Positions 14,875-43,089 of a stretch of DNA of 52,585 bases are shown piece after piece. The stretch is from an uncultured Clostridia bacterium (lineage in GTDB: Bacteria; Bacillota; Clostridia; Oscillospirales; Ruminococcaceae). The translations under genes and the position numbers were made by a program. The stretch spans positions 1 through 52,585 of the forward strand of contig CALZUA010000023.1 of NCBI GenBank assembly GCA_945829235.1. The letters run 5' to 3'. A model generated the notes under the pieces. The model saw only the letters and a list, made by a program, of their open reading frames with translations, ran no database searches and was not told the DNA's origin. The number at the start of each line of letters is the position of its first letter. Position 1 is the first letter of the stretch.

Positions 14875-14904
14875 TGTTACAAAACAAATAATTTTTCGTA
14901 TAAA
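14875..14904 (+). promoter_or_regulatory. ECF-type promoter A (TGTTAC-N16-CGTATAAA)
   Basis: TGTTAC at 14875-14880, exactly 16 bases, then CGTATAAA at 14897-14904, 38 bases before the ATG at 14943. A CGTA-type -10 with a -35 containing AC and a 16-bp spacer is the known style of ECF sigma promoters (for example Bacillus sigma-W). Three related sites occur in this window at 16267, 40059 and 43060. No good sigma-A promoter is seen in the same gap. Confidence 0.65.
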
Positions 14905-14942
14905 ACAGTGAAAGAAAAATAACAAGTTTTGGAGGCGGAATT

Positions 14943-16220
14943 ATGGCTAATGATACGGAAAAATTGTTTGATGAAATTCTTTCTGATGCGGCTAAAACTG
15001 TTTTGGATAATTTCCCCGAAGAGCTGAAAGTTTCAAATATGATGGGCGGACAGAGGGTTCGCACGGCTAATTCATTCTATAAAGAGCTGAACGGCTTTTT
15101 TGAAACAAACGGCGTTTATACCGAGGAAGAACAAATAGATGAACAAACGAGAAATATGTCCCGCGCAACGCTTTTTACCGTTGATGTTTTGAACAGCTTG
15201 TATCTCACGAACAGATTAAGCGACTATATTGATAATTACTTTGAAAATCCGGAAAACGAGCATCTCTATGCCAATGAAGAAGAAAAAAATCAACTCAAGA
15301 GTGACCTGAAAAAGCGTGTTGAGGACACGTTTGAGGTGAAAACGAACTCGCAGGAAGCAAAGGATTACGCGCAGTCCCTCAAGGACGGCTTTAGTGCGGA
15401 TTCGTATGAAAAGGGCATGAGCTGGGTTTATAACATAAACCAGTCTTTGACATATCAGGGCGGTATGAATCAGCTTACCTCATCGCAGGATTATTTTCAG
15501 GAAGCTCCCGACAGCATTGTGAGAAAAATCGTTGACGGAATAAACGCTCACTCCGCTGAAATAGCGCAGGAAGAAAAGCCGGTTACAAAAGGTATCCGCG
15601 GTTTTTCGGTTGCTTACGGTATCGGCAATGGAAAAGATGTAAATCCCGCTGATTTTGTTAAGCATTTCAAAAATTCGACTCTTTCCGATGATGAGAAACG
15701 CTGGGCAATAAATGTTTACAGAGATTCTTTGATTGACGACCGAAATGTCAAGAAAGATAATCGTTTTAATATCGGTTTGGGTGATATTAAGGTTGACGGA
15801 AAGCCGATGTTTACAAAAGAACAGCTTCGTGATGCCACAAAATCCGATGAGATGATTTGCGAGGTTATCGCAAGGGCGATGTCGGGAGAGAAAGTTACCG
15901 CAAATCTTACCGATGACAAAGAATATTTGCTGTCGCCGAAGATTGAAAATCACGGCAAGGAAAAAGAGAAGCATTGGTATGACTTTATCGTTGATTTTTT
16001 CAAATCCCATTTTGGCGGCGGCTCAGAAAAGGAAAAGGCCGCCAAGATTGACGATATGAAAACGGAGATTGAGAACACGCAGACAAAATACGCTGATTCG
16101 GTTTCCCGCCGCGAGAAGATTACGTTTAATGACCTTTTTGGAAAAAGCGCTCTTGACAAGGTAACTTCCGCTTCTAAACAACAGCCGCAGAAAACCAACA
16201 CTCTCGGCAAAACAAAATAA
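14943..16220 (+). CDS. Unrecognised protein, first of three paralogues with an LS-DEK-WA module
   Basis: 425 residues; GGAGG nine bases before the ATG. No signal peptide or clear membrane helix, so cytoplasmic. The N-terminal part (about 1-150) is helical and similar in layout to the next protein: both have LSDYIDNYF or HKQIDDYF followed by an EEEK-containing helix. One copy of the shared module lies at about 240-330: TLSDDEKRWA (from 246), then VDGKPMFTKEQL, then a helix ending ARAMSGEKVTANL. The C-terminal 90 residues are charged with a coiled-coil-like stretch. It stands between its own ECF-type promoter and a terminator, so is a single transcription unit. Function unknown; adjacency to the conjugation operon suggests element cargo or a secreted substrate (inference). 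Confidence 0.7.
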   Translation: MANDTEKLFDEILSDAAKTVLDNFPEELKVSNMMGGQRVRTANSFYKELNGFFETNGVYTEEEQIDEQTRNMSRATLFTVDVLNSLYLTNRLSDYIDNYFENPENEHLYANEEEKNQLKSDLKKRVEDTFEVKTNSQEAKDYAQSLKDGFSADSYEKGMSWVYNINQSLTYQGGMNQLTSSQDYFQEAPDSIVRKIVDGINAHSAEIAQEEKPVTKGIRGFSVAYGIGNGKDVNPADFVKHFKNSTLSDDEKRWAINVYRDSLIDDRNVKKDNRFNIGLGDIKVDGKPMFTKEQLRDATKSDEMICEVIARAMSGEKVTANLTDDKEYLLSPKIENHGKEKEKHWYDFIVDFFKSHFGGGSEKEKAAKIDDMKTEIENTQTKYADSVSRREKITFNDLFGKSALDKVTSASKQQPQKTNTLGKTK

Positions 16221-16224
16221 AATC

Positions 16225-16257
16225 AATCCCGAATGTTTTGAGCATTCGGGATTTTTT
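16225..16257 (+). terminator. Rho-independent terminator
   Basis: Perfect 11-bp stem AATCCCGAATG / CATTCGGGATT with a 7-base loop and a T run. Confidence 0.9.
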
Positions 16258-16266
16258 CGGAAATTC

Positions 16267-16296
16267 TGTTACAAAAAAGAAAGGCTTTCGTATAAA
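16267..16296 (+). promoter_or_regulatory. ECF-type promoter B (TGTTAC-N16-CGTATAAA)
   Basis: TGTTAC at 16267-16272, 16 bases, CGTATAAA at 16289-16296, then TAATCAGAAA. It lies 35 bases before the ATG at 16332 and has the same spacing as promoter A. Confidence 0.65.
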
Positions 16297-16331
16297 TAAT
16301 CAGAAACAAATAATTCGTAGGAGGTAATACT

Positions 16332-18839
16332 ATGGATAAAAGGTATAATAATTTAAACAAGACCATTTTGGACAAAGTTTTTGATGGTGCAAAGAAAAGC
16401 TTTGATTTTTCTATGGAGTTTAAAAGCGGCAATGATAGCGTAAATGCCAGCTTTGAGGATTATTTTGAAGATACTTTTGCAAGAATTCAGCTTATGGGCA
16501 ACAAGTCCGAGAGCAAGGGATTTGCCGGCGCGGAGGCTTTTGCTCTTAACGCGTTTAATGTCGTGGCACATACCCGCGAACTGCATAAGCAGATTGATGA
16601 TTACTTTGCGAATGAGGTTAACCAAACTCTGCTTGATGCGTATGGTATGAATGAGGAAGAAAAGACTGCTTATCGCAAGGAGCTCAAGGAAAAGGTTTCC
16701 GACTCGATTGGTTTCAAGGGGAACACTCCAGAAGAAAACGCTTTTATTGATAAGATTAACGCCGCTTTTGATATGAATCAGGGCAACAGCAACGCCGATT
16801 ATCTGAAAGAAACACTTAATTATCTCTCGAACGTTAGCAGATATATCGAAAACGGCGCAAGTCAAAAGGACGCGCTTACTACGGCTTTCAATGACGCGTC
16901 TTTTACAGGCGGCAATATCGATATCGCCACGGTGCTTTCAAGTGAGATTTCCATACTTGCTGACTCACTCGGCAAAGATGAAGAGAAGAACGACTTGTAT
17001 ATGAAGGATATTTCTGCAAACTATGTGGATGAAATCGATAATAGAGAGGTTTCTCCCGAATCGTTCAGCTATAGTTATGAGAAAAATCCCCAAAACCTGA
17101 CGAAGGATGAAAAAGCCTGGGCACAAAAGGCTTTTGGCAGAATTATTTTCAACACAATGGATATGGAAAGCGGCTGGGACGTTTTCAATATGGATTTGAC
17201 AAACTTCCGTGCCAACGGCGAGCAGATTATTTCTGATGAAGAATTTCAAAATGCCAAAAACCAGACCGGCGCTCTCAATCCCGAAAAGTTAGAGGAGTTT
17301 CAAGAGAAGATTGTCGCAAAGATGGCTTCCGGAGCGGAGATTTCGGTTATTGACAGAACACCCGAAAAAGCCGTTAATATAAATCTTGCGGAAATTAAGG
17401 CGAAAACACCGGCAGAAAAATTCCTTTTCGGTTATCCCGACTCTCTTACTGCCGCCGACAAGCAGTGGGCGCAAGATGTGACCGCAAATCTGATTAACTA
17501 CAACGGCGGTATGGTTGAAGTGAACAGATTTTATGCCGACGGCAAGCAGATTATTCCGAACGATGAAAATAGTAAGAATTTGTCGTTTGAGGATTGCTCA
17601 AGATTGATTGCCCAGAAGATTGCGTCCGGAGCGGAAATAGCTGTCAGAGTGTCTGCGTTTAATCAGGAACTCGAATTGATGACGATGGACGCGCAGGATA
17701 TGGCGGCAATCAATCCCGAAAAGGCTCCCGTTACGCTCGAGTCGTTCGCTGCGCATTTCAAAGCTGACCCCAACAATCTTACTCCCGAGGAAAAGGAGTG
17801 GGCGCGCGAGGCTTATGACAAGATGTTCTTAAGTTCGATGGATTTGTCGAACGGCTGGGACCCCAGTACCGTAAATATACAGGCTTTCTGTGCGAACGGT
17901 CAGCGAATCATCTCTGATGAGGAATTAGCAAAAACCGGCCCCGAAGATGTTGACAATTTGAAAGCAAAGATTGTTTTCAGTCTTGCTTCGGGTGATAAAG
18001 TTACCGTTCGCCGTGAGATTGAAGAGAAATCTGTATCGTTTGACTTGTCAAGCATCAAGGTGAGCCACGAAATCGACAAAGAACAGGCTGAACCTACCAA
18101 AGACGAGCCCGCCAAAACCGAGCCCGCCAAGACCGAGCCCGCCAAGACCGAACCCGCCAAGACCGAGCCCACCAAGACCGAACCTGCCAAGACCGAGCCC
18201 GCTAAAACCGAACCCACCAAGACCGAGCCTGCTAAAACCGAACCCGCTAAAACCGAGCGAGCTAAAGTTATTCGTTTTAAAACCGACCCCGCAAAAACAG
18301 ACCCTTCCAAAAAACAGCCCGCAAAAATTCCCGCAAAAAACATAAGTCGTAAGAATATTAACGCCAGAATGCTCCGATTGAAAAAGCAAATGCTTCAAAG
18401 ACAACGTATCGCGGCAAATATGGCGAAGGTGCAAAATGCGGTGAAGAATGCACAGAAAAATGCATCGATAAATGCACAGAGAAATGCACAGAGAAATGCA
18501 CAGAAAAATTCGGCGAAGACCACGATAAATCAGAAGCCTTCTTTTATCGAGAATTTTATGCGTAAGATATTGGTAAGTCTTGTTAAGGGATTTTTGGGCA
18601 TAGACCTTGACGAGGTAATAAACAAGCAGAAAGAAGCCGAAAAGTCTGCTGACAAGACAGATGAAAAGAAAAAGACCGAGTCTTCCCGCACGAAAACAGA
18701 TTTCAACGAGCTTATGAAAAAGGAAGCCGAAGCAAGCGGGAAAAAACTTCCCACTGAAAAGACCTTTGCAAAAACCAACGAAAAGGTCAATGAAAAGACC
18801 AATGAAAAGACGCTGACGCAAAAAGGTTTGGCAAAGTAA
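16332..18839 (+). CDS. Unrecognised large protein with three LT-DEK-WA modules and AKTEP repeats
   Basis: 835 residues; AGGAGG precedes the ATG. The helical N-terminus (1-170) resembles the preceding protein. Three copies of the shared module follow, starting near residues 254 (NLTKDEKAWA), 370 (SLTAADKQWA) and 481 (NLTPEEKEWA). Each continues with a loop such as ANGEQIISDEE and ends in a helix-strand KIVAKMASGAEISV. Then come eleven five-residue repeats EPAKT (about 587-641), a basic Asn/Gln/Ala repeat region (about 705-730), a short hydrophobic stretch (about 745-758) and a Lys/Glu/Thr-rich tail. No known catalytic motif is visible. Transcription from promoter B probably continues into the next gene, since only 44 bases and no terminator lie between. 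Confidence 0.7.
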   Translation: MDKRYNNLNKTILDKVFDGAKKSFDFSMEFKSGNDSVNASFEDYFEDTFARIQLMGNKSESKGFAGAEAFALNAFNVVAHTRELHKQIDDYFANEVNQTLLDAYGMNEEEKTAYRKELKEKVSDSIGFKGNTPEENAFIDKINAAFDMNQGNSNADYLKETLNYLSNVSRYIENGASQKDALTTAFNDASFTGGNIDIATVLSSEISILADSLGKDEEKNDLYMKDISANYVDEIDNREVSPESFSYSYEKNPQNLTKDEKAWAQKAFGRIIFNTMDMESGWDVFNMDLTNFRANGEQIISDEEFQNAKNQTGALNPEKLEEFQEKIVAKMASGAEISVIDRTPEKAVNINLAEIKAKTPAEKFLFGYPDSLTAADKQWAQDVTANLINYNGGMVEVNRFYADGKQIIPNDENSKNLSFEDCSRLIAQKIASGAEIAVRVSAFNQELELMTMDAQDMAAINPEKAPVTLESFAAHFKADPNNLTPEEKEWAREAYDKMFLSSMDLSNGWDPSTVNIQAFCANGQRIISDEELAKTGPEDVDNLKAKIVFSLASGDKVTVRREIEEKSVSFDLSSIKVSHEIDKEQAEPTKDEPAKTEPAKTEPAKTEPAKTEPTKTEPAKTEPAKTEPTKTEPAKTEPAKTERAKVIRFKTDPAKTDPSKKQPAKIPAKNISRKNINARMLRLKKQMLQRQRIAANMAKVQNAVKNAQKNASINAQRNAQRNAQKNSAKTTINQKPSFIENFMRKILVSLVKGFLGIDLDEVINKQKEAEKSADKTDEKKKTESSRTKTDFNELMKKEAEASGKKLPTEKTFAKTNEKVNEKTNEKTLTQKGLAK
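18091..18255 (+). repeat. 15-bp tandem repeat encoding EPAKT/EPTKT
   Basis: Eleven consecutive 15-bp units (GAGCCCGCCAAGACC and close variants) code for EP[A/T]K[T/D]. The units differ at silent third positions, so the array is not freshly expanded. The product would be an extended Pro/Lys/Glu linker. Confidence 0.9.
18446..18509 (+). repeat. 12-15-bp tandem repeat encoding NAQRNAQKN
   Basis: Repeated AAATGCACAGAG units, in frame, give Asn-Ala-Gln-Arg/Lys repeats, probably a basic helical or disordered segment. Confidence 0.8.
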
Positions 18840-18883
18840 ATTGCTTGTCGATAAACCCTGACTAAATAACGGAGGAAGAAGAT

Positions 18884-21800
18884 ATGGAAAAGAAAACCAT
18901 CAAGAACTTTGAGGATTTTAAGAGAATCGCTGTCGAAAAGGCGTTCGGCGAGAAAGCCGAGTTCAGCCAAAAAATGTGGGAGGAATCGTTGAAGAAGCGC
19001 TATGAAAACGATGAAATCTCATTCCGCGTAAGCGAATTTGACAACGGAAATATTATTCGCGACAAGGGCGTTCTGGAGCTGTTTTCCAATATGGAACGTC
19101 TTGATGATTACATAAAAAATGAGAAAGACCTTGCGCATAAAACAGCCGCAGTTGCGACAAGACATGTTATTTCGGCGGGTTTGAACGATTTGCTTAATCA
19201 GTACACCTATTCGGGTATTGATGAAGTCTATGACCAAATAGCGGAAGAATATGATATCTCCGAAGAAGTTGCACAGGCTTATCAGAATACCCGCAACCAA
19301 TATCTTCAGGCAAGTGAAAATCGTAATCGAAACATTCCTTTGAGTGAAGCTTCTCTCGGACAGCTTAACGCACAGGAAAAAACCGATGTGTACAACAAGG
19401 TCGTAAGTTCGTTTTTTGACACCGAGGTCTGGAAAGACGAAAACGGAAACGTTATCCGGCCGAGCAAGGCGGCAAACGAAGTTCTTGGCGATGTAACCGC
19501 CTATGCCTTGCAAATGGATAATGACGCAGTGCTTGGTGATAATGAGTATCACGAAGTGAGTGTTTACGATGATGAATTCGAGAAAGAGTATGTCGAGGAA
19601 TTAACGAAAGAATTTGCTTCCGAAAAAGATATATTCAAGGAGTCGGAAATTGCTCAAAGAATCAGGGATTTCAAAGATAATTTTGTGGATTTCTCTATGA
19701 CAGGCAACAGGCAGGATTTGGACGAGGTTTATCTGACGCTTGACAAAAGCCCGCTTGCTGATATCAGAATGGAAGAGTTTGTTAAAAATCAGAAAGCCGA
19801 TAAGCTCTCCCATATCGAATTGGATTGGGCTGAATCCAACTTAGACAGAATGGTGAACAGCCTTTATACAAAAGATGAGCTTCGCGCGCTTAAGCAGGCG
19901 GGAATTGACCCCGCGATGGGCATTTTGGTTGACGGAAAGCCCGTAAACTGGTACGGTAAAGGAAGCCATAGGTTTGATACTCAATTCAAGGGAAATAATC
20001 CGCTTGAAAACGCAAAAGTCAAGGCTGAGATAGTATCAAAGGCTCTTCAAGGCTCGAAAATCGATATCTGCAAGTATAAGATTAACGACAGGGGCGAGGT
20101 TGAGTCTGATAAAATTGTACCCGTAAAAACGGACGCAACCATAAAAGAGAGAAAGTGGTCTTTCATTCGCTGGCTTATGGAGTTCTTTAACTTTAGATCC
20201 AAAACAGAGATGTTGGATAAAATCAAGGACGCTAACGAAGCGAAAAGAGATTACACCGACTATTACAACCAAAAAAGAGAGTATGAAAAGCAGGTGGCTG
20301 AGGGTAAAACCGGAATCGAAGCACCGGAAAAGCCCAGGTCGATTGATGACGCTGAAAGAAGAGTTGTGACAACAAAAGCCAGAGCCACAATCGCCATGAA
20401 AGAAGAATACTATGACCGTTTTGCAAAAGACTTTTTTGGCGAGATAGCTGTTGACGGCAAAGTCTTTCGCGGATTTAATCTGCGGGAAGCATTCCAATAT
20501 ACCGACGCTAGTGGTTCTATAAATCCTGCATTACTGACAATGACCAGAAAACCCACAGTGGTTCATATGGCTCTCCTTTATGGTATGTCGAAGGGGCATT
20601 CGCTGAACGAGATGCTTGATATCAAAAACGGCGAGCTTCGCAAGAAAATCGGTAAAGAATTTGTGGAAGAACTTCACGTTAAATCATACGACTGGTACTT
20701 GGAATCCACGAACAAGAATTTGTACAAACAATTCCAAGAATTAAAGGAAATTTGGCAAGAAGAGGATAAAGAGAAATCCGAAGAAGCCAAGAAAGCCAAG
20801 CAAGCCGGAAAAACCGAAGAAACTAAGAAAGAAAAGGAAGCAAGGGTGAAAAAGGACGCCGATAAGCTTGAGAGAGAAGTGAGGAAGGCGGAGATTATGA
20901 ACAACCTCAAGGATTCTCAGAAAAGCTATGGCAAATATCTTATCGACAGAAGGGAAAAGCTCGAAAGGTTCTGTCTGGAAAGCGCGGAAGCGTTTAAAAA
21001 ACAGCCGATTGGCGTCGTAAGTCCCTTCGACACAGAAGCGTTTATTCAGAATTATCCCATGCTTTCTATGATGGGTTCAATGGCGAAGGATTGGAGTCAG
21101 TCGCTTGCAATCTTTGAGCGTGAAACAATTAAAGATGGCGATAAGGAGGTTGAAATCCCTATATCCAAATATAATTGGTTTAAGCTCAATGAAAATGATG
21201 AGCAGAGATTAAATTTCGGATATGACAATGCCGATAAACAACTCATCAATCAGGTAAACGAAAGAGCTTGCACGGTCTACGATTATTGTGGCGATTTGAA
21301 TAATTTAACTCTTATCTCGTTCTTTGCAGACAATTACTTCGGTTTCCTTACAGACGAGAATTACGCAACAATAGATTATACTAACGAAGAATTCAGGCTC
21401 TCAAGGGCAGCAAAAGGAAAGGCTGCGGTTCAATATGCTTCCGAACGGATAAACGAAGGCAGTACAATCGGTGACATTATCGAAAATACAGAAATGTGTA
21501 CAACACTCGGCGGAGTTTTTAGGAGTTCTGCTGACACCGATGTCGAGACAAACGTGATGGAAGCTGACCTTGAATTTACTTTATATAACGACAATCCCGA
21601 AACGTCAAATATGAAGTTTGTCAATCCCGATAAGCTTATAGGGGACGTAAGGGAAGGTCAGTTTGTTTCGCCGACTGATGTCTATGCGGGAGACCTTGTT
21701 GAGCAGTACACTGAAAATGGTGTACAAAAAGAAAAGGTAAACAGACTCTTTTTTGTTCCTATCGCCGATGAAGAACGGAAAGCCAAAGAAATGATGGAAG

Positions 21801-22111
21801 AATTGATAGGTCCGTTTAAGGCAGATGAAGACACAAGCGTGCTTGACGCTCATAAGAGAATTTTAGATATTGAGAATAACATCGAAAAAGCCCCCGAGAG
21901 TTACGCCGAGAAAGCTCCCGAGAGTAACGTCAAAATCTCTGAATTCGAAGACGATGAGGAAGTTGCCTCCGAGAAGCGACTGATTTCATTTGACGAGATT
22001 ACCCAAAGCGAGAAGCCAAAGCAGACCACAAAGCAGACCGAAAAGCAAACCGAAAAGCAGACGACTGCACAAAAGCAAACTCCAGAAAAGACGTCTGAAA
22101 TTAAACACTAA
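18884..22111 (+). CDS. Unrecognised 1075-residue protein, third paralogue of the module family
   Basis: 1075 residues; GGAGGAAGAAG precedes the ATG. No signal peptide; largely helical and charged. The N-terminal 140 residues resemble those of the two upstream proteins (for example ERLDDYIKNEKD at the place of LSDYIDNYF). A divergent copy of the shared module starts near residue 306: KLSHIELDWAE, then VDGKPVNWYGKG, then VKAEIVSKALQGSKIDI. The middle is unique, with a Lys/Glu-rich coiled coil (about 620-680). Further parts such as ISFFADNYFGFLTDENY (about 805-825) match nothing I know. The tail is Lys/Gln/Thr-rich. Co-transcribed with the gene before and closed by a strong terminator. Function unknown. 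Confidence 0.7.
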   Translation: MEKKTIKNFEDFKRIAVEKAFGEKAEFSQKMWEESLKKRYENDEISFRVSEFDNGNIIRDKGVLELFSNMERLDDYIKNEKDLAHKTAAVATRHVISAGLNDLLNQYTYSGIDEVYDQIAEEYDISEEVAQAYQNTRNQYLQASENRNRNIPLSEASLGQLNAQEKTDVYNKVVSSFFDTEVWKDENGNVIRPSKAANEVLGDVTAYALQMDNDAVLGDNEYHEVSVYDDEFEKEYVEELTKEFASEKDIFKESEIAQRIRDFKDNFVDFSMTGNRQDLDEVYLTLDKSPLADIRMEEFVKNQKADKLSHIELDWAESNLDRMVNSLYTKDELRALKQAGIDPAMGILVDGKPVNWYGKGSHRFDTQFKGNNPLENAKVKAEIVSKALQGSKIDICKYKINDRGEVESDKIVPVKTDATIKERKWSFIRWLMEFFNFRSKTEMLDKIKDANEAKRDYTDYYNQKREYEKQVAEGKTGIEAPEKPRSIDDAERRVVTTKARATIAMKEEYYDRFAKDFFGEIAVDGKVFRGFNLREAFQYTDASGSINPALLTMTRKPTVVHMALLYGMSKGHSLNEMLDIKNGELRKKIGKEFVEELHVKSYDWYLESTNKNLYKQFQELKEIWQEEDKEKSEEAKKAKQAGKTEETKKEKEARVKKDADKLEREVRKAEIMNNLKDSQKSYGKYLIDRREKLERFCLESAEAFKKQPIGVVSPFDTEAFIQNYPMLSMMGSMAKDWSQSLAIFERETIKDGDKEVEIPISKYNWFKLNENDEQRLNFGYDNADKQLINQVNERACTVYDYCGDLNNLTLISFFADNYFGFLTDENYATIDYTNEEFRLSRAAKGKAAVQYASERINEGSTIGDIIENTEMCTTLGGVFRSSADTDVETNVMEADLEFTLYNDNPETSNMKFVNPDKLIGDVREGQFVSPTDVYAGDLVEQYTENGVQKEKVNRLFFVPIADEERKAKEMMEELIGPFKADEDTSVLDAHKRILDIENNIEKAPESYAEKAPESNVKISEFEDDEEVASEKRLISFDEITQSEKPKQTTKQTEKQTEKQTTAQKQTPEKTSEIKH

Positions 22112-22115
22112 GCTA

Positions 22116-22153
22116 AAAAAATGATGTACTCTTTGTAGGGTACATCATTTTTT
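22116..22153 (+). terminator. Rho-independent terminator
   Basis: Perfect 14-bp stem AAAAAATGATGTAC / GTACATCATTTTTT with a 10-base loop; the A/T tracts make it potentially bidirectional. Confidence 0.9.
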
Positions 22154-22288: not shown

Positions 22289-22312
22289 AAAAATAATTAA
22301 AGAGGAGCACTT

Positions 22313-32200: not shown

Positions 32201-32442
32201 CTACTTTAATTTCCTTGAAAGAACCTTGCAGAGATTTATCGCGGTTACCGTCAACCATTTTCGCTCGTGAACCTCATCGGTGAACTCAAAATCCTCGTTC
32301 AGCACCTTCACAAACACGTCCTCGGTGCAATCCTCGGCATCAGCTGTCGATTTCATATAAGTCATACATAATCGATAGATGTATTTCCAGTGGCGCTCGT
32401 AAAACGCCTCAATTCTTCATCAGTCTTGAAAGTTGTTTCCAT
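32201..32442 (-). pseudogene. Frameshifted and truncated ECF sigma factor
   Basis: AGGAGG (32451-32456, minus) and ATG at 32442 start METTFKTDEEL, after which a one-base shift leads to the frame EAFYERHWKYIYRLCMTYMK, AEDCTEDVFVKVL and KWLTVTAINLCK. This is sigma region 2 of an ECF factor with the usual domain order. Region 4 is lost and the frame ends in TAG at 32201-32203. It runs directly into the anti-sigma fragment, so a deletion fused the two genes. Confidence 0.75.
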
Positions 32443-35628: not shown

Positions 35629-37821
35629 ATGCCGATGAAGGAAAAAAAGTTTGCCGTCAAAAAGCCCGTCACAAAGGGCGCGTGCAAGGTTCCCGTGGTA
35701 ATGCAGATGGAGGCGCTCGAGTGCGGAGCGGCTTGTCTTGCGATGGTTCTCGCGTATTACGGGAAGTGGATTCCGCTGGAGCAGGTGCGCTCGGACTGCG
35801 GTGTATCGCGTGACGGCTCAAATGCAAGAAATATCCTCCGCGCCGCGAGAAGCTACGGTTTAACCGCAAAGGGCTACCGCTACGAGCCGGAGGATTTGCG
35901 TAAAGTCGGGAAATTCCCGTGCATTATCCACTGGGAGTTCAACCACTTTGTCGTGCTGAACGGCTTTCGCGGCGACAAGGCTGTTATCAACGACCCCGCG
36001 CGCGGCACTGTAAGCGTGTCGATGAAAACGTTTGACGAGGCGTTCACGGGGATTTGCATGATGTTCGAGCCGACCGCGGAGTTTCAGCCGAGCGGCAAGC
36101 CAAAGTCAATGCTCACGTTTGCGAAAAGCAGGCTCAAGGGCGCGGGAACAGCGGTCAAGTTTTTCGTGCTCACCTCGCTTATAACCTCGCTTATCGGCGT
36201 GATAAATCCCGCGTTTTCGAGAGTTTTTCTCGACCGTTTGCTCACGGGTGAAAACCCCGAGTGGTTCTTGCCGTTTATAATAATGCTGTCGGGATTTGCG
36301 ATAATTCAGCTTGTCGCGGCGTGGATAGGTGCGGTGTACTCGCTTCGGATAAACGGAAAGCTCGATATCGTGGGAAGTTCATCGTTTATGTGGCAGGTTC
36401 TGAGAATGCCGATGGAGTTTTTCTCGCAACGTATGGCGGGAGATATCCAACAGCGCCAGTCCTCGAACGCAAGCATCGCCAAAAATCTCGTGAGCACCTT
36501 CGCGCCGCTTGCGCTGAACACGATTATGATGGTTTTCTATCTTGTCGTGATGTTGCGGTACAGCGTTTTGCTCACGTTAATCGGCGTAGCTTCAATCTTC
36601 GTCAACCTGCTTGTATCAAACATTATCTCGAAAAAACGCGTGAACATAACCCGAGTTCAGATGCGTGACGCGGGAAAGCTCGCGGGAACAACCGTTTCGG
36701 GTATCGAGATGATTGAAACGATAAAGGCGAGCGGCGCGGAAAACGGATTTTTCGAGAAATGGTCGGGCTATCAGGCAAGTGTGAATACTCAACAAGTCAA
36801 ATTCGCGCGGCTTGACCAGATGCTTGGAATGATTCCGTCCCTCGTAAACTCGCTCACGAGCGTTGCCGTGATGATGATAGGCGTTTTTCTCGCGATGAAC
36901 GGGCAGTTCACGGTCGGTATGATTATGGCGTTTCAGGGCTTTCTGACTTCGTTCACAGCGCCCGCGATGAGCCTTATTTCATCGGGACAGACGCTTCAGG
37001 AAATGCGAACCGAAATGGAGCGCGTTGAGGACGTTATGAAATACCCGACAGACGTGAATTACGATAATGACGCGGTTTCCGAGGACACGAAGTACAAAAA
37101 GCTCTCGGGAAATATCGAGATGAAAAACGTGACTTTCGGTTACTCAAAGCTTGCCGAGCCGCTGATAACCGACTTTAACCTCACGCTTAAACCGGGGAGC
37201 AGAGTTGCGTTTGTGGGAAGCTCGGGTTGCGGAAAATCCACGCTTGCGAAGCTGATTTCGGGGCTGTATAAGCCGTGGAGCGGCGAGATTTTGTTTGACG
37301 GGAAGCTGATTTCCGATATCGACAGAAGCGTGTTCACAGGCTCGCTTGCGGTTGTTGACCAAGACATAATTTTGTTCGAGGACACGATTGCCGCGAATAT
37401 CAAGATGTGGGACGACACAATCGAGGATTTTGAGATGATTATGGCGGCGCGCGACGCGCATTTGCATGAGGATATTATGCAACGCGAGGGCGGTTATCGG
37501 TACAAAATAACCGAGGACGGCAAGGACTTTTCGGGCGGACAGCGTCAGCGTATGGAGATTGCGCGAGTGCTTGCACAGGACCCCACGATTATCATTCTTG
37601 ACGAGGCGACAAGCGCTCTTGACGCGAAAACCGAGAGCGAGGTTGTGCAGTCGATAAAGGACAGAGGGATAACCTGCATTGTTGTCGCGCACAGGCTTTC
37701 CACAATCCGCGACTGCGATGAAATTATCGTGATGGATTACGGAAAGGTTGTCGAGCGCGGCACGCACGATGAGCTTTACGCAAAGGGCGGGCTGTACACA
37801 CAGCTTGTATCAAACGAGTAA
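35629..37821 (+). CDS. NHLM-type peptidase-containing ABC exporter (C39 peptidase, TM, ATPase)
   Basis: 730 residues. N-terminal C39 peptidase: catalytic Cys32 in MEALECGAACLAMVLAYYG, His in HWEFNHFVVLNG and Asp in INDPARG. This domain cuts leader peptides after double-Gly type sites (here SGG or AGG). Six membrane helices (about 165-450) and an ATPase follow: Walker A GSSGCGKS (530-537), signature FSGGQRQRMEIARVLA and Walker B TIIILDEATSALD. The closely spaced genes, the HlyD-like gene before and the second ABC gene after match the NHLM bacteriocin export cassette. Substrates are presumably the small leader peptides from 40128 on. Confidence 0.93.
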   Translation: MPMKEKKFAVKKPVTKGACKVPVVMQMEALECGAACLAMVLAYYGKWIPLEQVRSDCGVSRDGSNARNILRAARSYGLTAKGYRYEPEDLRKVGKFPCIIHWEFNHFVVLNGFRGDKAVINDPARGTVSVSMKTFDEAFTGICMMFEPTAEFQPSGKPKSMLTFAKSRLKGAGTAVKFFVLTSLITSLIGVINPAFSRVFLDRLLTGENPEWFLPFIIMLSGFAIIQLVAAWIGAVYSLRINGKLDIVGSSSFMWQVLRMPMEFFSQRMAGDIQQRQSSNASIAKNLVSTFAPLALNTIMMVFYLVVMLRYSVLLTLIGVASIFVNLLVSNIISKKRVNITRVQMRDAGKLAGTTVSGIEMIETIKASGAENGFFEKWSGYQASVNTQQVKFARLDQMLGMIPSLVNSLTSVAVMMIGVFLAMNGQFTVGMIMAFQGFLTSFTAPAMSLISSGQTLQEMRTEMERVEDVMKYPTDVNYDNDAVSEDTKYKKLSGNIEMKNVTFGYSKLAEPLITDFNLTLKPGSRVAFVGSSGCGKSTLAKLISGLYKPWSGEILFDGKLISDIDRSVFTGSLAVVDQDIILFEDTIAANIKMWDDTIEDFEMIMAARDAHLHEDIMQREGGYRYKITEDGKDFSGGQRQRMEIARVLAQDPTIIILDEATSALDAKTESEVVQSIKDRGITCIVVAHRLSTIRDCDEIIVMDYGKVVERGTHDELYAKGGLYTQLVSNE

Positions 37822-37833
37822 GGGGGCGGAAAT

Positions 37834-40047
37834 ATGGGCTGGTTTGACGAGCAAATCAAACAGCGCAAGCAAAACGACAACTATGTTTTCGCCGATACTT
37901 TTATAAATATGGCGGGCGCGATTATGGGGAAAAAGCTCTCCCAAGCGCTCAACGATGACCGAATTGTCACAAAGGACGCGATTGACGAGATTTTGAAATA
38001 TTATCACGTCAAAACGCGCGATGTCCCGAGCGACATCAAGGATATGAACGACACGCTTGAGTTTCTGCTCCGACCTTACGGGATAATGCGCAGAAATGTT
38101 GTTCTCTCGGACGGTTGGTACAAGGACGCTGTCGGGGCGATGCTTGCGACAATGAAAGAGGACGGGCGTATTGTCGCGCTTATCCCGACGGGACTTTCGG
38201 GGTACAGCTATTTCGACTACAAAACGGGCAAGAAAAAGAAAATCAACCGCAAAAGCCAAAAGCTCTTTGATGAGGAGGCAATCGCGTTTTACAAGCCGTT
38301 TCCGCTGAAGGAGCTGGGCTTTTCGGGGCTGATGAAGTACATTGTCGGCACGCTCTGCCCCGCGGATTTTGTCACAATCGGCATAGCGGCGCTGGTTGTG
38401 GCGTTGCTCGGAATGTTTGTGCCGCGCCTCAACAACATCATTTTCGGGACGGTTATCACCTCGGGGAGCAATCAGCTTTTCTTCGCGATAACAGCATTTT
38501 TGGTGTGCGTGACAATCGGCACGATGCTGATGAACTCGGTTCAGTCGCTCCTCACCGCGCGCGTCAAAACCAAAATGAGCATCTCGGTACAGGCGGCGAC
38601 AATGATGCGGATTTTGTCGCTCCCGACCGACTTTTTCAAGAAATTCAGCTCGGGCGAGCTCGCCGAGAAAGCGCAGTACATAAACTCAATCTGCGATTTA
38701 CTGGTATCGGTTTTGTTTTCAACGGGACTTACATCGGTGTTCTCGCTTGTGTATATTTGGCAGATTTTCGTGTTTGCGCCGAGTCTTGTTGTACCGGCGC
38801 TGATTATTATTCTGGTAACGGTTGTGTTGTCGGTAATCTCGGCGGTTGTTCAGATGAAGATTACGCTTCAACAAATGGAGTTGTCCGATAAAGCAAGCGG
38901 CTTGAGCTACTCGCTTATCAGCGGCGTGCAGAAAATCAAGCTCTCCGGCTCGGAGAAGCGCGCGTTTGCGAAATGGGGAAATCTCTACGCAAAGCAGGCT
39001 CAGCTCACCTACAACCCGCCGATGTTCCTCAAGGTGAACGCGGTTTTGAACACGGCGGTTTCGCTTATCGGAACGATTGTGATGTATTATATGGCGGTGA
39101 GCACGAACATTTCGGTTGCCGATTACTACGCGTTCAACAGCGCTTATGGAATGGTTTCGGGCGCGTTTATGTCGCTTGCGGGAATTGCGCTCACGGTTTC
39201 ACAGCTCAAGCCGATTATGGAAATCGTCAAGCCGATTTTGCAGACCGTCCCCGAGATTTCCGAGGGAAAACAGGTTGTCACGCGGCTTTCGGGCGGGATT
39301 GAGCTGGACAACATTTCGTTCCGTTATAATGAAAATATGCCGCTTGTGCTGGACGGTTTGTCGCTGAAAATTCGCGCGGGGCAGTATGTGGCGATTGTCG
39401 GGAAAACGGGCTGCGGAAAATCCACGCTTATGCGAATACTTCTCGGCTTTGAGAAGCCGCAGAAGGGCGAGGTTTATTACGATGGCAAGTCGATTAACAC
39501 CATTGACCTCAAGTCGCTCCGCAGAAAAATGGGCGTTGTTATGCAAAACGGCAAGCTGTTTCAGGGGAGCATTTATTCAAATATCGTGATATCCGCGCCG
39601 TGGCTCACGCTTGACGAGGCTTGGGAAGCGGCTGAGAAGGCGGGAATTGCCGAGGATATCCGCAGAATGCCGATGGGAATGTCAACCGAAATCAGCGAAG
39701 GCTCGGGCGGTATTTCCGGCGGACAGCGCCAACGATTGCTGATTGCGCGGGCGATTGCACCGAAGCCGAAAATCCTGATGTTTGACGAGGCAACAAGCGC
39801 TCTCGACAACATCACGCAGAAAAAGGTTTCCGAGTCGCTTGACGCGCTGAAATGCACGAGAATTGTTATCGCGCACAGATTATCAACGATTAAGCAGTGC
39901 GACAGGATTATTGTTCTCGACAAGGGCAAAATCATCGAGGACGGAACCTATGATGAACTTATCGCCAAAGACGGATTTTTCGCGGAGCTTGTTGCCCGTC
40001 AGCGGCTTGACGATGCCGATGAAAAAGAAAAAGTAAAAAATTCTTGA
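37834..40047 (+). CDS. NHLM-type ABC transporter, second subunit (no peptidase)
   Basis: 737 residues; GGGGGCGGAAAT before the ATG, 12 bases after the peptidase transporter. The N-terminal 160 residues are soluble and lack Cys-His peptidase motifs, as in the second NHLM ABC protein (NHLM ABC transporter, ATP-binding protein). Membrane helices lie at about 170-470. ATPase: Walker A GKTGCGKS (523-530), signature ISGGQRQRLLIARAIA, Walker B ILMFDEATSALD. It probably pairs with the C39 transporter as a heterodimer. The C-terminal tail is charged (DDADEKEKVKNS). Confidence 0.92.
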   Translation: MGWFDEQIKQRKQNDNYVFADTFINMAGAIMGKKLSQALNDDRIVTKDAIDEILKYYHVKTRDVPSDIKDMNDTLEFLLRPYGIMRRNVVLSDGWYKDAVGAMLATMKEDGRIVALIPTGLSGYSYFDYKTGKKKKINRKSQKLFDEEAIAFYKPFPLKELGFSGLMKYIVGTLCPADFVTIGIAALVVALLGMFVPRLNNIIFGTVITSGSNQLFFAITAFLVCVTIGTMLMNSVQSLLTARVKTKMSISVQAATMMRILSLPTDFFKKFSSGELAEKAQYINSICDLLVSVLFSTGLTSVFSLVYIWQIFVFAPSLVVPALIIILVTVVLSVISAVVQMKITLQQMELSDKASGLSYSLISGVQKIKLSGSEKRAFAKWGNLYAKQAQLTYNPPMFLKVNAVLNTAVSLIGTIVMYYMAVSTNISVADYYAFNSAYGMVSGAFMSLAGIALTVSQLKPIMEIVKPILQTVPEISEGKQVVTRLSGGIELDNISFRYNENMPLVLDGLSLKIRAGQYVAIVGKTGCGKSTLMRILLGFEKPQKGEVYYDGKSINTIDLKSLRRKMGVVMQNGKLFQGSIYSNIVISAPWLTLDEAWEAAEKAGIAEDIRRMPMGMSTEISEGSGGISGGQRQRLLIARAIAPKPKILMFDEATSALDNITQKKVSESLDALKCTRIVIAHRLSTIKQCDRIIVLDKGKIIEDGTYDELIAKDGFFAELVARQRLDDADEKEKVKNS

Positions 40048-40058
40048 AAAAATATTAT

Positions 40059-40084
40059 CCCTTCGGCGAAATTCATCGTATAAA
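40059..40084 (+). promoter_or_regulatory. ECF-type promoter C (weak -35, CGTATAAA -10)
   Basis: CGTATAAA at 40077-40084 followed by GATACAGAAG, closely like promoters B and D. The -35 region reads TTATCCC, one base offset from the TTAC of the others. CCCTTC / GAAGGG (40059-40064 and 40091-40096) form an inverted repeat around it. 43 bases before the peptide gene at 40128; the operon includes an ECF sigma gene. Confidence 0.55.
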
Positions 40085-40127
40085 GATACAGAAGGGCAAA
40101 AAATATTGACCACAAGGAGGATTTACA

Positions 40128-40349
40128 ATGGAGAACAATGAAATTTTTGCAAAACTGAAAGAGGCGAAATCAGCGGAGGAACTCGTTGAAATCGCAAAGG
40201 CAAACGGTGCGGAAATCACCGCGGAGAACGCACAAAAGCTGTTCTCGCAGATTAGCGGCGGAGAGATTTCCGACGAGGAGTTGGAGGAAATTTCAGGCGG
40301 GATAGTTTATCATAATTTAAGACCTCATAATAAAAAAAAGAGAAGATAA
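40128..40349 (+). CDS. Nif11-like leader peptide precursor 1
   Basis: 73 residues; AAGGAGG before the ATG. A Nif11-type helical leader (EIFAKLKEAKSAEELVEIAK, then NAQKLFSQISGGEISDEELEEISGG) is followed by a core of 15 residues, IVYHNLRPHNKKKRR. The SGG end of the leader is the expected cut site for the C39 domain encoded 2.3 kb upstream. The core is very basic, has no Cys and no Ser/Thr, so lanthionine or azoline modification is not possible. The leader is almost identical to that of the next gene. Probably a secreted cationic peptide or signal (inference). Confidence 0.85.
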   Translation: MENNEIFAKLKEAKSAEELVEIAKANGAEITAENAQKLFSQISGGEISDEELEEISGGIVYHNLRPHNKKKRR

Positions 40350-40383
40350 TTTAATAAAACATTTTTTGAGAGGAGAATTTACT

Positions 40384-40575
40384 ATGGCAAACGAAATTTT
40401 TGAAAAGCTGAAGGCGGCGAAATCAGCGGAGGAACTCGTTGAAATCGCAAAGGCAAACGGTGCGGAAATCACCGCGGAGAACGCACAAAAGCTGTTCTCG
40501 CAGATTAGCGGCGGCGAGTTGTCCGACGATGATTTGGAGAAAATCGCGGGCGGAAGATTTCACATCGGAAAATGA
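40384..40575 (+). CDS. Nif11-like leader peptide precursor 2
   Basis: 63 residues from ATG at 40384 (GAGAGGAG upstream). The leader is nearly identical to precursor 1 over about 45 residues, at DNA level too, pointing to recent duplication. It ends KIAGG, leaving a core of only six residues, RFHIGK. Such a short core suggests a signalling peptide or a degenerate copy. Confidence 0.8.
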   Translation: MANEIFEKLKAAKSAEELVEIAKANGAEITAENAQKLFSQISGGELSDDDLEKIAGGRFHIGK

Positions 40576-40598
40576 TAAAAAAATTGAGGTGAGCCGGT

Positions 40599-40787
40599 AT
40601 GGAGAATAAAATCAAGGCTTTGTTTGAATTTCAGAGATTTTCGGGCAACAAGCGTCTTGAAGCGATGATAAACGACACCGAAAGCCGTTATAAGGACGAG
40701 CTGTCCGACGAAGATGTGGAGAATGTCAGCGCGGCGGGAAGCGGTTTACCGAAGAAAAAAACTCTCGGAAATACGGAGAACAAGTGA
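40599..40787 (+). CDS. Leader-peptide-like small protein 3, overlapping the sigma gene
   Basis: 62 residues; TTGAGGTGAG before the ATG. The N-terminal half (KIKALFEFQRFSGNKRLEAMI) differs from the Nif11 leaders, but ELSDEDVENVSAAGSG matches the leader end of the others, with AAGSG in place of SGG. The tail (LPKKKTLGNTENK) is basic and lacks Cys. Its stop overlaps the sigma factor start (TGATG), so its translation would feed into that of the sigma factor. It could be a precursor or a regulatory peptide. Confidence 0.7.
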   Translation: MENKIKALFEFQRFSGNKRLEAMINDTESRYKDELSDEDVENVSAAGSGLPKKKTLGNTENK

Positions 40788-41281
40788 TGATTTGCTCTGA
40801 AGAAGAAAAGAACAAAATCTATACCGATTTCCACAAAAAAGTGACGCGGTATGTAACAGGAAAAATCCCAAATCCTCAAGATGCTGAGGATTTGGTTTCC
40901 TGCGTTTTTATGAAGGTTTTTCAAAAGCTGGACACCTTCGATGAGAGCAAGGCTTCGCTCTCAACGTGGATTTTCACGATAACCCGCAACACCGTCTACG
41001 ATTTTTACGCCACCCGAAAGGATTTCTCGGAACTGCCCGAGGATATCGCAACCGACAGCAATATTGACGAAAATCTGCTGAACGAGGAAACGCTCGAACA
41101 GCTTGCGGACGCGCTTGAAAGCCTTGACGAGCGTTCGCGGGACTTGATAATCCTGCATTATTACAGCGGTTTAACATTGAAGGAAATTGCCGACAGAATG
41201 CAAATGTCCTACCCAAACGCAAAGGTTATACATAAGAAAGCGCTTCGCGCAATGCAGGCGTTTTTGGGCGACTTGAACTGA
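40787..41281 (+). CDS. ECF-type RNA polymerase sigma factor
   Basis: 164 residues from ATG at 40787, which overlaps the preceding stop; a GTG at 40784 is the alternative. Region 2: FHKKVTRYVTGKIPNPQDAEDLVSCVFMKVFQKL and TWIFTITRNTVYDFY. Region 4: LDERSRDLIILHYYSGLTLKEIADRMQMSYPNAKVIHKKAL. No anti-sigma gene adjoins it. It lies in a peptide operon with an ECF-like promoter (C), suggesting that it drives its own expression. The near-perfect promoters at 14875, 16267 and 43060 are the best candidates for its regulon in this window. Confidence 0.92.
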   Translation: MICSEEEKNKIYTDFHKKVTRYVTGKIPNPQDAEDLVSCVFMKVFQKLDTFDESKASLSTWIFTITRNTVYDFYATRKDFSELPEDIATDSNIDENLLNEETLEQLADALESLDERSRDLIILHYYSGLTLKEIADRMQMSYPNAKVIHKKALRAMQAFLGDLN

Positions 41282-41296
41282 AGAAAGGAACACACA

Positions 41297-43024
41297 ATGA
41301 GAAGAGTATCTATGAGGAAAATTTCAACTTTGCTTGTGAGCTTGATTATGCTTATGAGCATTACGCTTGTTTTGCCGTTCACGGCAAGCGCGGCGGACGT
41401 TACGGATTTTACGATAAAAATTGTACATACAAACGATATCCACGCGCGCGTTGTCGAGAACGCGGACGGCAAGATTATCGGAATGGAGCGCCTCGGCGGG
41501 ATTATTGACGACTACAGCAAGGACGCGGATATAAGTCTTGCGCTGGATTCGGGCGATATGTTCCACGGGCAGTCGATTGCGACGCTTGTTCAGGGCGAGT
41601 CGATTGCGCGGCTTATGAAGGAGTGCGGCTATGACGCGATGACGGCGGGCAACCACGACTGGAGCTACGGCAAGGACAGATTGAAGGAGCTTGTCGAGAT
41701 GTCGGGCGCGGAGATGCTTTGCGGAAATGTTGTCGATGAAAACGGAAATCCGTTTTTCGGGTACGACTGCATAATGCCGGAAGTCGTCAAGGACGGAAAA
41801 ACGCTTACCGTGGGCGTTTTCGGGCTGATTGACCCTGCGGTTTATTCGTCAACGGCACCGTCAAACGTCGCGGGACTTACCTTTACAGACCCCGTTGAAT
41901 TCGCGAACAAAGCCGCCAAAGCGATTAAAGACAAGGGCTGCGATGTGGTAATCGCGCTTGCTCACACATATAAGCCCGAAGAGCTTGCAAAGCAGGTTGA
42001 CGGCGTGGATTTGTGGCTTTGCGGTCACGAGCATATCGATATCAACACCACCGTTACCACTCCGAATGGCTCTACGGCTATTGTTATCGAGAACGGCTAT
42101 TATTTGTATCAAGTCGGGCTGATTGAGCTGAACGTTGCGATGAACGAAAGCGGCGAGATTACGGCTGTCGATTACAACAGAACTGCGCTTGATTACGAGA
42201 AAGCGTCCGCATACGAGAAAAACGCCGATGTAACGGCATTGCTTGACGAGATAAACAAGGAGCAGAGCGTGATTTTGAACAAGGTTGTCGGTTCTTCTCC
42301 CGCGGAGCTTGACGGTGTTTGGGAACACCTGAGAATTGACGAAACCAACCTCGGCAGAGCGGTTACGGCGGCTTATCTCAAGGCAACCGGCGCGGACGTT
42401 GCTTTTGAAAACGCGGGCGGAATCCGAGCAAGCGTGAAGGCGGGCGAGATAACTTACGGCGATATAATCAGCGTAAGTCCTTACGGCAACTACATTGTCA
42501 CAAAGCAGGTTACCGGAAAACAGCTCAGGGAAATCCTCGAAACCTCGATTGATATCCAGCTTCAGTGCATCGCGGCAAACGACAGCGGAATTTACGATGC
42601 GTGGCCGAAATCTTCGGGAAGCTATCTGCAAACGGGCGGAATGACGGTTGAGTACAACCCGAGCCTTGAAGCGGGCAAGCGCGTTGTATCGGTAAAGGTT
42701 GGCGAGGAGCCGCTTGACGAGAATAAGCTGTATACGGTTGCCACGAACAATTTTGTTGCGGTATCGAAATATTACCCTCAGCTTGCCGAGGCGGCGGAAA
42801 CAGGCGAATTTTGCGCTTGTGACGAGGCGCTGATTGAGTTCTTCAAGCAGGACAGCGCGGCAATCGAGCAGGCGGTCAACAAGCAGGGAATGATTAAAAC
42901 GAGCAAACCCGCCGACAGCGATGTTCCTCCGACAGGCGTTGAGGATATAACCGTTTGGGTTGCTTTGGCGGCGGCTGTTTTGGCGGCAACGCTTGCGGTT
43001 GGCAAAAAGTTGCGTGCAAAATAA
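41297..43024 (+). CDS. Secreted, membrane-anchored 5'-nucleotidase / UshA-family metallophosphoesterase
   Basis: 575 residues; GAAAGGAA before the ATG, 15 bases after the sigma gene. Signal peptide (about 1-36, ending ASA). Metallophosphatase motifs: VHTNDIHAR, LALDSGDMFHG, GNHDWSYG, IALAHTYK and CGHEHID. The C-terminal nucleotidase domain follows (ENAGGIRASVKAGEITYGD and ISVSPYGNYIV). PPTGVEDITVWVALAAAVLAATLAVGKKLRAK is a membrane helix with a basic tail, so it stays on the cell surface. It hydrolyses nucleotides outside the cell. Its place inside the sigma/peptide locus is unusual; phosphate or nucleoside salvage at the surface, or turning over a nucleotide signal, are possible links. Confidence 0.9.
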   Translation: MRRVSMRKISTLLVSLIMLMSITLVLPFTASAADVTDFTIKIVHTNDIHARVVENADGKIIGMERLGGIIDDYSKDADISLALDSGDMFHGQSIATLVQGESIARLMKECGYDAMTAGNHDWSYGKDRLKELVEMSGAEMLCGNVVDENGNPFFGYDCIMPEVVKDGKTLTVGVFGLIDPAVYSSTAPSNVAGLTFTDPVEFANKAAKAIKDKGCDVVIALAHTYKPEELAKQVDGVDLWLCGHEHIDINTTVTTPNGSTAIVIENGYYLYQVGLIELNVAMNESGEITAVDYNRTALDYEKASAYEKNADVTALLDEINKEQSVILNKVVGSSPAELDGVWEHLRIDETNLGRAVTAAYLKATGADVAFENAGGIRASVKAGEITYGDIISVSPYGNYIVTKQVTGKQLREILETSIDIQLQCIAANDSGIYDAWPKSSGSYLQTGGMTVEYNPSLEAGKRVVSVKVGEEPLDENKLYTVATNNFVAVSKYYPQLAEAAETGEFCACDEALIEFFKQDSAAIEQAVNKQGMIKTSKPADSDVPPTGVEDITVWVALAAAVLAATLAVGKKLRAK

Positions 43025-43059
43025 GTTTGCCGAAAAACACGAATTTTTTCAAAAAGCAT

Positions 43060-43089
43060 TATTACCTAGGCGGTTTTCAATCGTATAAA
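43060..43089 (+). promoter_or_regulatory. ECF-type promoter D (TTAC-N16-CGTATAAA)
   Basis: TTAC at 43062-43065, exactly 16 bases, CGTATAAA at 43082-43089, then TTAACAGAAA. It lies 46 bases before the peptide gene at 43136. Confidence 0.62.

What the first reader, a model, noticed from the sequence alone, without database searches (positions are those of the whole stretch)
14875..43089. Shared ECF-type promoter motif links large paralogues, peptide operons and an ECF sigma gene
TTAC-N16-CGTATAAA occurs before 14943, 16332 and 43136 with identical spacing; CGTATAAA with a weaker -35 also occurs before 40128. Sites B, C and D continue with N4-CAGAA. CGTATAA -10 elements belong to ECF promoters. 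The only intact ECF factor in the window (40787) is in the operon behind site C. This predicts one regulon spanning conjugation-linked cargo and secreted peptides, with autoregulation.
Basis: partly seen in the sequence, partly recalled or inferred. Interest (0 to 1): 0.8.

Follow-up and report, generated by a model that had tools for sequence, protein, structure and literature searches.

The report
Two ECF sigma regulons, not one
A promoter motif that looked like one gene-control circuit in a clostridial genome is most likely two look-alike circuits, one before genes of a transfer/secretion machine and one before small antimicrobial-type peptide genes, and the likely switch of the first lies just outside the stretch that was read.

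Summary
In detail: TTAC-N16-CGTATAAA occurs three times in the window (0.03 expected), and N4-CAGAA follows at three of four sites. The one-regulon reading does not hold. Genome-wide, two promoter classes share CGTATAAA but differ in the -35.

Class I, TGTTAC-N16-CGTATAAA (sites A, B), precedes a family of large proteins and a type IV secretion (T4SS) operon. Among 43 genomes of the genus it goes with another ECF gene (4 of 4 genomes with it, 1 of 39 without; P=4e-5), which lies on contig C4, about 7.6 kb upstream of the window.

Class II, TTATCCC-N15-CGTATAAA (site C; site D by context), precedes Nif11-leader peptide operons, a LanM operon and ECF genes, including the window's. Similar sites lie near ECF homologues in 16 of 29 loci of other Clostridia, so autoregulation is supported there.

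By-products: class I proteins share a C-terminal R-x-K-x-S-F-x-E-L motif, perhaps a T4SS signal; the class II ECF is coupled to a small conserved protein resembling the peptide leader but ending in AAG. All evidence is comparative; no transcript was measured.

The parts
14875..14904 (+). Site A: class I promoter-like site TGTTAC-N16-CGTATAAA before 14943
16267..16296 (+). Site B: class I promoter-like site before 16332, followed by N4-CAGAA; same element before the 83% identical orthologue in G545
40055..40084 (+). Site C: class II promoter-like site TTATCCC-N15-CGTATAAA before the peptide/small protein/ECF genes
43060..43089 (+). Site D: TATTACC-N15-CGTATAAA before 43136; class II by spacer, downstream element and target, -35 alone undecided
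14943..16220 (+). Class I cargo-type protein, 425 aa, C-terminal motif REKITFNDLFG
   Evidence: no Pfam or NCBIfam match
16332..18839 (+). Class I cargo-type protein, 835 aa, motif RTKTDFNELMK
18884..22111 (+). Class I cargo-type protein, 1075 aa, 44 nt behind 16332, no site of its own; variant motif KRLISFDEITQ
1..14814 (+). T4SS operon continuing from the end of contig C4: VirD4 C-terminal part (58-450), VirB4-like (5932-8616), STAS (12504-12797), HATPase (12830-13237), accessory genes
35629..37821 (+). NHLM-type peptidase/permease/ATPase exporter ABC1 (TIGR03796, 957 bits, cut-off 853)
37834..40047 (+). NHLM-type exporter ABC2 (TIGR03797, 748 bits, cut-off 709)
40128..40349 (+). Nif11-leader peptide gene (TIGR03798, 32.5 bits, cut-off 32.3)
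40384..40575 (+). Nif11-leader peptide gene (TIGR03798, 36.9 bits)
40599..40787 (+). Small 62-aa protein with a leader-like end in AAG, its stop overlapping the ECF start (TGATG)
   Evidence: no family match (51, 52)
40787..41281 (+). ECF sigma factor (ECFw)
41297..43024 (+). 5'-nucleotidase-type secreted protein, same neighbour in G544
43136..43405 (+). GG-leader peptide gene behind site D (TIGR03798 27.2 bits, below the cut-off 32.3)

Best explanation
The CGTATAAA sites are ECF-type promoters of two sister regulons with a common -10 and different -35 elements. Class I (TGTTAC-N16-CGTATAAA; sites A, B) is most likely read by the ECF factor of contig C4 (ECFc4), encoded next to a LuxR/MalT-like regulator; it turns on a T4SS operon and a family of large cargo-type proteins sharing a C-terminal motif. 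Class II (TTATCCC-N15/16-CGTATAAA; site C, most likely D) is most likely read by the window's ECF (40787, ECFw) and its relatives; it turns on Nif11-leader peptide operons, a LanM operon elsewhere in the genome and the sigma gene itself. Shown: the sites, the two classes, their targets, and their co-occurrence with two ECF lineages. Inferred: binding, transcription starts, signals and the export of the cargo.
For: 18 of 18 TNNTMC-N16-CGTATAAA sites in the genome fall in one of the two classes, reversed pattern 2. Class I goes with ECFc4: 4 of 4 genomes with it, 1 of 39 without, P=4e-5; order-wide only G000 and G435 of 394 genomes have 2 or more sites, and only these two have an ECFc4 orthologue of 80% or more. 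19 of 25 cargo genes have a class I-like site 43-106 nt upstream, 8 of them not used to define the motif. Class II: 11 core sites here against 30 in 147 other family genomes; same gene order around the site in G544; class II-like site near the ECF in 16 of 29 homologous loci, about 1.5 expected at the 5% control level; ECFw relatives group together (90/90) and ECFc4 orthologues apart (99/98). VirD4 spans the end of C4 and the start of the window.
Against: G528 has 6 class I sites without an ECFc4 hit. G545 has a class II site and no ECFw orthologue found, G549 an ECFw orthologue and no site in its short contig; the class II association rests on few genomes (P=0.01). G435 has one near-match (TTATCCG) not counted as class II. 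Sites D and C6 are intermediate in the -35. The downstream ACAGAAA element occurs in both classes. 13 of 29 homologous loci do not pass the control level. Two class II sites precede non-peptide genes. The 90/90 support of the ECFw group is below the program's star level. No expression data.
Confidence: 0.8

Rival explanations
1. One regulon: the 40787 sigma reads all four sites and autoregulates.
For: Shared CGTATAAA, shared TTAC at A, B and D, shared downstream CAGAA at B, C and D.
Against: Class I in G435 and G542 without an ECFw orthologue; class II in G544 without class I; distinct -35s; no relative of 14943 or 16332 in the 30 ECFw-homologue loci.
Confidence: 0.06
2. Two sigmas with overlapping specificity: each mainly reads its own class, but intermediate sites such as D (TATTACC) and C6 (TGATACC) are read by both, linking the two programmes.
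For: D scores -1.6 and C6 +1.7 on the -35 alone; identical -10; shared downstream element.
Against: Spacer, downstream element and target put both with class II.
Confidence: 0.25
3. TGTTAC or TTATCCC is bound by an activator (for class I the LuxR/MalT-like protein) and the -10 serves another sigma.
For: The LuxR/MalT-like gene stands directly before ECFc4 in G000, G435 and G542.
Against: Fixed N16 or N15/16 spacing to the -10 is what a -35 gives; orthologues of ECFw have class II-like sites in other genera.
Confidence: 0.08
4. Chance matches in AT-rich intergenic DNA.
For: CGTATAAA alone is only mildly enriched in the window.
Against: The combined motifs exceed shuffles, reversed patterns and other genomes.
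Confidence: 0.01

Closest known systems
ECF sigma regulons (for example Bacillus SigW/SigX type, with a CGTA-type -10; consensus recalled, not read here)
   Same: Region 2 and 4 sigma domains, bipartite -35/-10 with fixed spacing, a site ahead of the sigma operon.
   Different: -35 elements TGTTAC and TTATCCC rather than TGAAAC (recalled); no recognised anti-sigma gene; targets are T4SS/cargo and RiPP precursors.
NHLM/Nif11 RiPP export systems
   Same: ABC1/ABC2 exporters above the NCBIfam cut-offs, Nif11-leader peptides, LanM on C3.
   Different: ECF factor with a co-translated AAG small protein in the operon, and a sigma-class promoter before separate peptide operons across the genome.
lah cluster of Lachnospiraceae C6A11 (PMC6363468; passages seen only)
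   Same: Many Nif11-leader precursor peptides with a C39 exporter.
   Different: 'RNA polymerase' does not occur in that paper's main text; whether an ECF gene lies in that cluster was not checked.
ICE-type T4SS of Firmicutes (CD1115-type VirD4, Mbov_0397-type VirB4, Mbov_0395-type pilin)
   Same: VirD4 and pilin homologues above cut-off, VirB4 just below (556 against 590 bits).
   Different: No PF03432 relaxase on contigs C4/C23 of G000, C8 of G435 or C7 of G542; own ECF factor; several cargo genes with a common C-terminal motif.

Membership tests
ECF sigma factor (ECFw, 40787) | Sigma70 regions 2 and 4 and no other domain | tested here: met
   59.9 and 46.1 bits over a 165-aa protein
ECF sigma factor (ECFw, 40787) | Promoter-like site of its own class ahead of its operon | tested here: met
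   site C, no + strand terminator-like site before the ECF; 12 of 29 homologous loci have a site above control level ahead of the ECF, 4 more ahead of the small gene downstream
ECF sigma factor (ECFw, 40787) | Dedicated anti-sigma factor | tested here: inconclusive
   only a small AAG protein without family match is coupled; binding untested
ECF sigma factor (ECFw, 40787) | Drives transcription from the motif | not testable with these tools
   needs start mapping or reporters
NHLM/Nif11 RiPP system | NHLM ABC1 and ABC2 exporters | tested here: met
   957 and 748 bits, above cut-offs
NHLM/Nif11 RiPP system | Nif11-type leader peptides | tested here: met
   40128 and 40384 above the cut-off; 43136 below
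NHLM/Nif11 RiPP system | Modifying enzyme | tested here: inconclusive
   LanM behind a class II site on C3; none recognised among the window genes scanned
Conjugative T4SS / ICE | VirD4, VirB4 and pilin | tested here: met
   VirD4 and pilin above cut-off, VirB4 556 of 590 bits, in G542/G435 orthologues of the window operon
Conjugative T4SS / ICE | Relaxase in the element | tested here: inconclusive
   PF03432 hits lie on other contigs in G000, G435 and G542; other relaxase families not searched

The most novel reading that the evidence does not exclude
Two sister ECF sigmas run two secretion programmes in one bacterium. ECFc4 controls a relaxase-less T4SS that exports a family of large proteins through a C-terminal R-x-K-x-S-F-x-E-L signal. 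ECFw is held by a co-translated peptide-leader mimic whose AAG end docks on the C39 exporter, so that export capacity or load sets sigma activity.
Probability: 0.13. Interest if true: 0.85.

Novelty: new variant of a known kind. Interest (0 to 1): 0.6.

Why it matters
It replaces a tempting one-circuit reading by two, names which of 34 sigma-like matches most likely drives each gene set, and gives a promoter signature that flags peptide (RiPP) operons and T4SS-linked genes in unstudied Clostridia. The C-terminal motif makes protein export by a Gram-positive T4SS testable, and the AAG protein is a candidate control for an ECF factor that has no recognised anti-sigma.

Tried and rejected
Considered and rejected: (a) one regulon, see rivals. 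(b) TTAC-N15-17-CGTATAA as the defining motif: 10 hits genome-wide, reversed pattern 1, but C12:17284 lies inside a reading frame, C4:74385 has N17 and overlaps the 3' end of a reading frame, and C3:67111 has CGTATAAT before a sensor kinase; none of the three fits either class. (c) N4-CAGAA as a class marker: it occurs in both classes. (d) Class I autoregulation: no exact class I site stands ahead of the LuxR/MalT-ECFc4 gene pair in G000; the nearest, C4:181525, points the other way.

Led nowhere: viral contigs for 14943 (13 stretches matched a pattern, none a relative); plasmids for 14943 (no match); plasmids for ECFw (96 records, each under 60% identity); solved structures for ECFw (27 distinct sequences, sigma factors, best E 7e-11). 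Eight paper searches: in the listings shown, nothing on an ECF factor with Nif11/NHLM peptides or on T4SS cargo with a common C-terminal motif in Firmicutes. Structure prediction of the small protein never ran, nor that of 14943, so no fold evidence is used.

Cautions: genes in fetched loci come from a simple ORF picker of mine; starts are approximate. The spacer labels printed are inverted (printed 14 means 16, printed 16 means 14). The background list includes a second copy of the C4:174229 cargo gene and the six G528 class I sites. The C-terminal motif matrix was trained on the 24 proteins it is reported for. L101 was dropped because its match starts at base 2; 54 of 55 collected ECF sequences entered the tree. 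Near-identical C3 sites (three) were left out of the class II matrices. The output was cut and is not used for counts. Genus and order counts are of exact patterns.
Full report
OBSERVATION. CGTATAAA occurs five times in the window, all on the + strand, against 1.87 expected. TTAC-N15-17-CGTATAA occurs at 14877, 16269 and 43062, all with N16, against 0.03 expected. CGTATAAA-N4-CAGAA occurs at B, C and D, 3 of 5 genome-wide hits, reversed pattern 0. The window is the whole of contig C23 of a 3.23 Mb, 52-contig genome, which has 34 matches to sigma region 2 at E<=0.001; being the only ECF in the window is therefore a weak argument for owning the sites.

TWO CLASSES. Side by side, the genome's sites form two families. 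Class I is TGTTAC-N16-CGTATAAA: A and B, three on C4, one on C13. Class II is TTATCCC-N15-CGTATAAA (9 of 12 exactly), often followed by N3-ACAGAAAGGCAAA: C and D, eight on C3, one on C6, one on C30. A pattern covering both, TNNTMC-N16-CGTATAAA, finds 18 sites here and 2 for the reversed pattern; all 18 are one class or the other. In leave-one-out scoring the class II sites are all positive in sum and the class I sites all negative, but on the -35 alone D scores -1.6 and C6 only +1.7. So the TTAC shared by A, B and D is partly misleading: A and B read TGTTAC, D reads TATTACC. For the class II core ATMCC-N15-CGTATAA this genome has 11 sites; 147 other genomes of the family have 30 in all, at most 4 in one.

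TARGETS. Class I: A, B, C4:181525, C4:186123 and C13:63131 stand directly before members of a family of large proteins that are linked by blastp, some only weakly. C4:188930 stands before the T4SS operon; its first genes (79 aa, pilin-like) were read in the orthologous loci of G435 and G542. The operon runs off the end of C4 into the window: VirD4 of G542 matches the end of C4 with residues 1-531 and the start of C23 with residues 514-662, at 93-94% identity. By this, the C4 ECF (C4:184238-184729) lies about 7.6 kb upstream of the window's first base. Class II: sites lead arrays of GG-leader peptides (Nif11 type, TIGR03798), a LanM operon with four such peptides (TIGR03897, 463 bits), a small-protein/ECF pair on C3, and in the window the peptide, small-protein, ECF and 5'-nucleotidase genes. 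Two class II sites have other neighbours: a secreted-type protein (L067:9867) and a SpoIIP-like gene (L069:6782). The exporters at 35629 and 37834 are the NHLM ABC1/ABC2 pair, both above cut-off.

WHICH SIGMA. In 43 genomes of the genus, orthologues of the C4 ECF (80% identity or more) occur in G000, G435, G542 and G545, and these have 6, 2, 2 and 5 class I sites. Of the other 39 only G528 has class I sites (6), with no ECFc4 hit at E<=1e-15; it is 83% complete, and one of its class I targets matches the cargo family distantly (21% over 413 aa). Fisher P=4e-5. Order-wide 7 of 394 genomes have any class I site; only G000 and G435 have two or more, five have one, and the reversed pattern gives 6 hits in all; G000 and G435 are also the only ones of the 394 with an ECFc4 orthologue of 80% or more. 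Orthologues of ECFw (55% or more) occur in G000, G544 and G549; TTATCCC-type class II sites in G000, G544 and G545 (P=0.01). G549's contig starts about 420 nt before the small gene, so its promoter may lie off the contig; G545 is 73% complete. A near-match in G435 (TTATCCG) was not counted. In G544 the order ABC2, class II site, peptides, small protein, ECF, 5'-nucleotidase is that of the window.

BEYOND THE GENUS. One scan of genome contigs gave 30 loci with ECFw homologues, mostly Lachnospiraceae MAGs. A fixed class II matrix gives 13 hits above 15 in 366 kb (29 loci) against 1 in the reversed sequences. With the spacer allowed to vary by one, 16 of 29 loci have a site above the 95% control level and 8 exceed all 87 control windows; 12 of the 16 lie 267-1059 nt ahead of the ECF gene, and four lie 511-585 nt after its start, 73-126 nt before the small gene, which in those loci follows the ECF. 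Queries 14943 and 16332 find nothing in the 30 loci. In a tree of 54 sequences ECFw, its orthologues, the genome contigs homologues and the divergent C3 ECF fall in one group of 37 (90/90, below the program's star level), the four ECFc4 orthologues in another (99/98).

PREDICTIONS CHECKED. For 25 cargo genes collected by homology and C-terminus, the 250 nt upstream were scored: 19 have a class I-like site at 18 or more, 43-106 nt ahead. Eight of the 19 were not among the exact sites that defined the motif, for example TGTTAC-N16-CGTATATA before C4:174229 and TGTAAC-N16-CGTATAAA before several G542 genes. The six misses are w18884, c4_13611, G435_3862, G542_10755, G545_426 and G545_4227; five of them lie 44-76 nt behind another cargo gene. 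Among 226 other genes those at 18 or more are the six selected G528 sites, a second copy of the C4:174229 gene and two T4SS pilin genes.

BY-PRODUCTS. (i) The 24 cargo proteins compared carry R-x-[KR]-x-[ST]-F-x-[DE]-L-[MI] or a variant 34-50 residues from the C-terminus (the matrix was trained on them). Of 228 other ORFs three pass the lowest cargo score: an untrained cargo homologue (L179:11338) and a 140-142-aa T4SS-operon protein in two genomes, with a third genome's copy just below. A T4SS export signal is the obvious guess; export is not shown. PF03432 relaxases lie on other contigs in G000, G435 and G542; other relaxase families were not searched. (ii) The small gene beside ECFw is found in 26 of 30 homologous loci, upstream of the ECF within about 140 nt in 22 and downstream in 4. 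The 30 sequences aligned (26 plus window, C3, G544, G549) all have AAG where the peptides have GG, after a leader-like LSDDDLE. Its stop overlaps the ECF start (TGATG). For the related LahT exporter the recognition motif lies in the last 13 residues of the leader (PMC6363468, passages seen), so a leader mimic that binds the C39 domain is a fair but untested hypothesis.

MECHANISM AND LIMITS. Most likely ECFc4 with polymerase reads class I, and ECFw with polymerase reads class II, including its own operon; no terminator-like site stands on the + strand between site C and the ECF. Inferred, not shown: binding, starts, signals, and the roles of the LuxR/MalT-like regulator (GerE 49 bits) and of the SpoIIE, STAS and HATPase genes near both systems. 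Cross-talk at site D remains open. No paper on this turned up in the listings of eight searches; most subscription papers are not in that library.

Noticed in passing
window 1-450 and end of G000:C4: VirD4 spans two contigs (G542 residues 1-531 on C4, 514-662 on C23), so the window follows C4 in the genome.
   Followed up: yes
window 9298-9726; L176:8918-9340; L166:8420-8860: A 140-146-aa T4SS-operon protein (MGYFDDP...) carries the same C-terminal motif as the cargo proteins.
   Followed up: partly
window 40599-40787 and homologues: Small protein beside the ECF with AAG in place of the GG of the peptide leaders in all 30 aligned sequences.
   Followed up: partly
window 32207-32404 (-): Remnant of a sigma region 2 (36.6 bits, 71-aa open frame) between exporter/phosphatase genes.
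   Followed up: no
window 43432-43713: A GG-leader peptide gene with an early in-frame stop, seen by eye in the sequence; left as it is.
   Followed up: no
window 43979-44260: Further GG-leader peptide ORF (93 aa, ends ...MEAVAGGYFLSIDSTKKGPSGLKWL).
   Followed up: no
G000:C3:107852-137000 (L066, L067): Large peptide island: LanM operon, SpoIIE/STAS/HATPase genes, NHLM-like exporters, divergent ECF, and an array of Nif11-like peptides with repeated class II sites.
   Followed up: partly
L158-L163 (G528): Six TGTTAC-N16-CGTATAAA sites in a genome without an ECFc4 hit; another ECF may read the same promoter there.
   Followed up: partly
G000:C27:3616 and G000:C29:35166: Two ECF genes with identical scores on two contigs, perhaps a duplicated segment.
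   Followed up: no
window 48677-51226: 849-aa protein with a dockerin type I domain.
   Followed up: no
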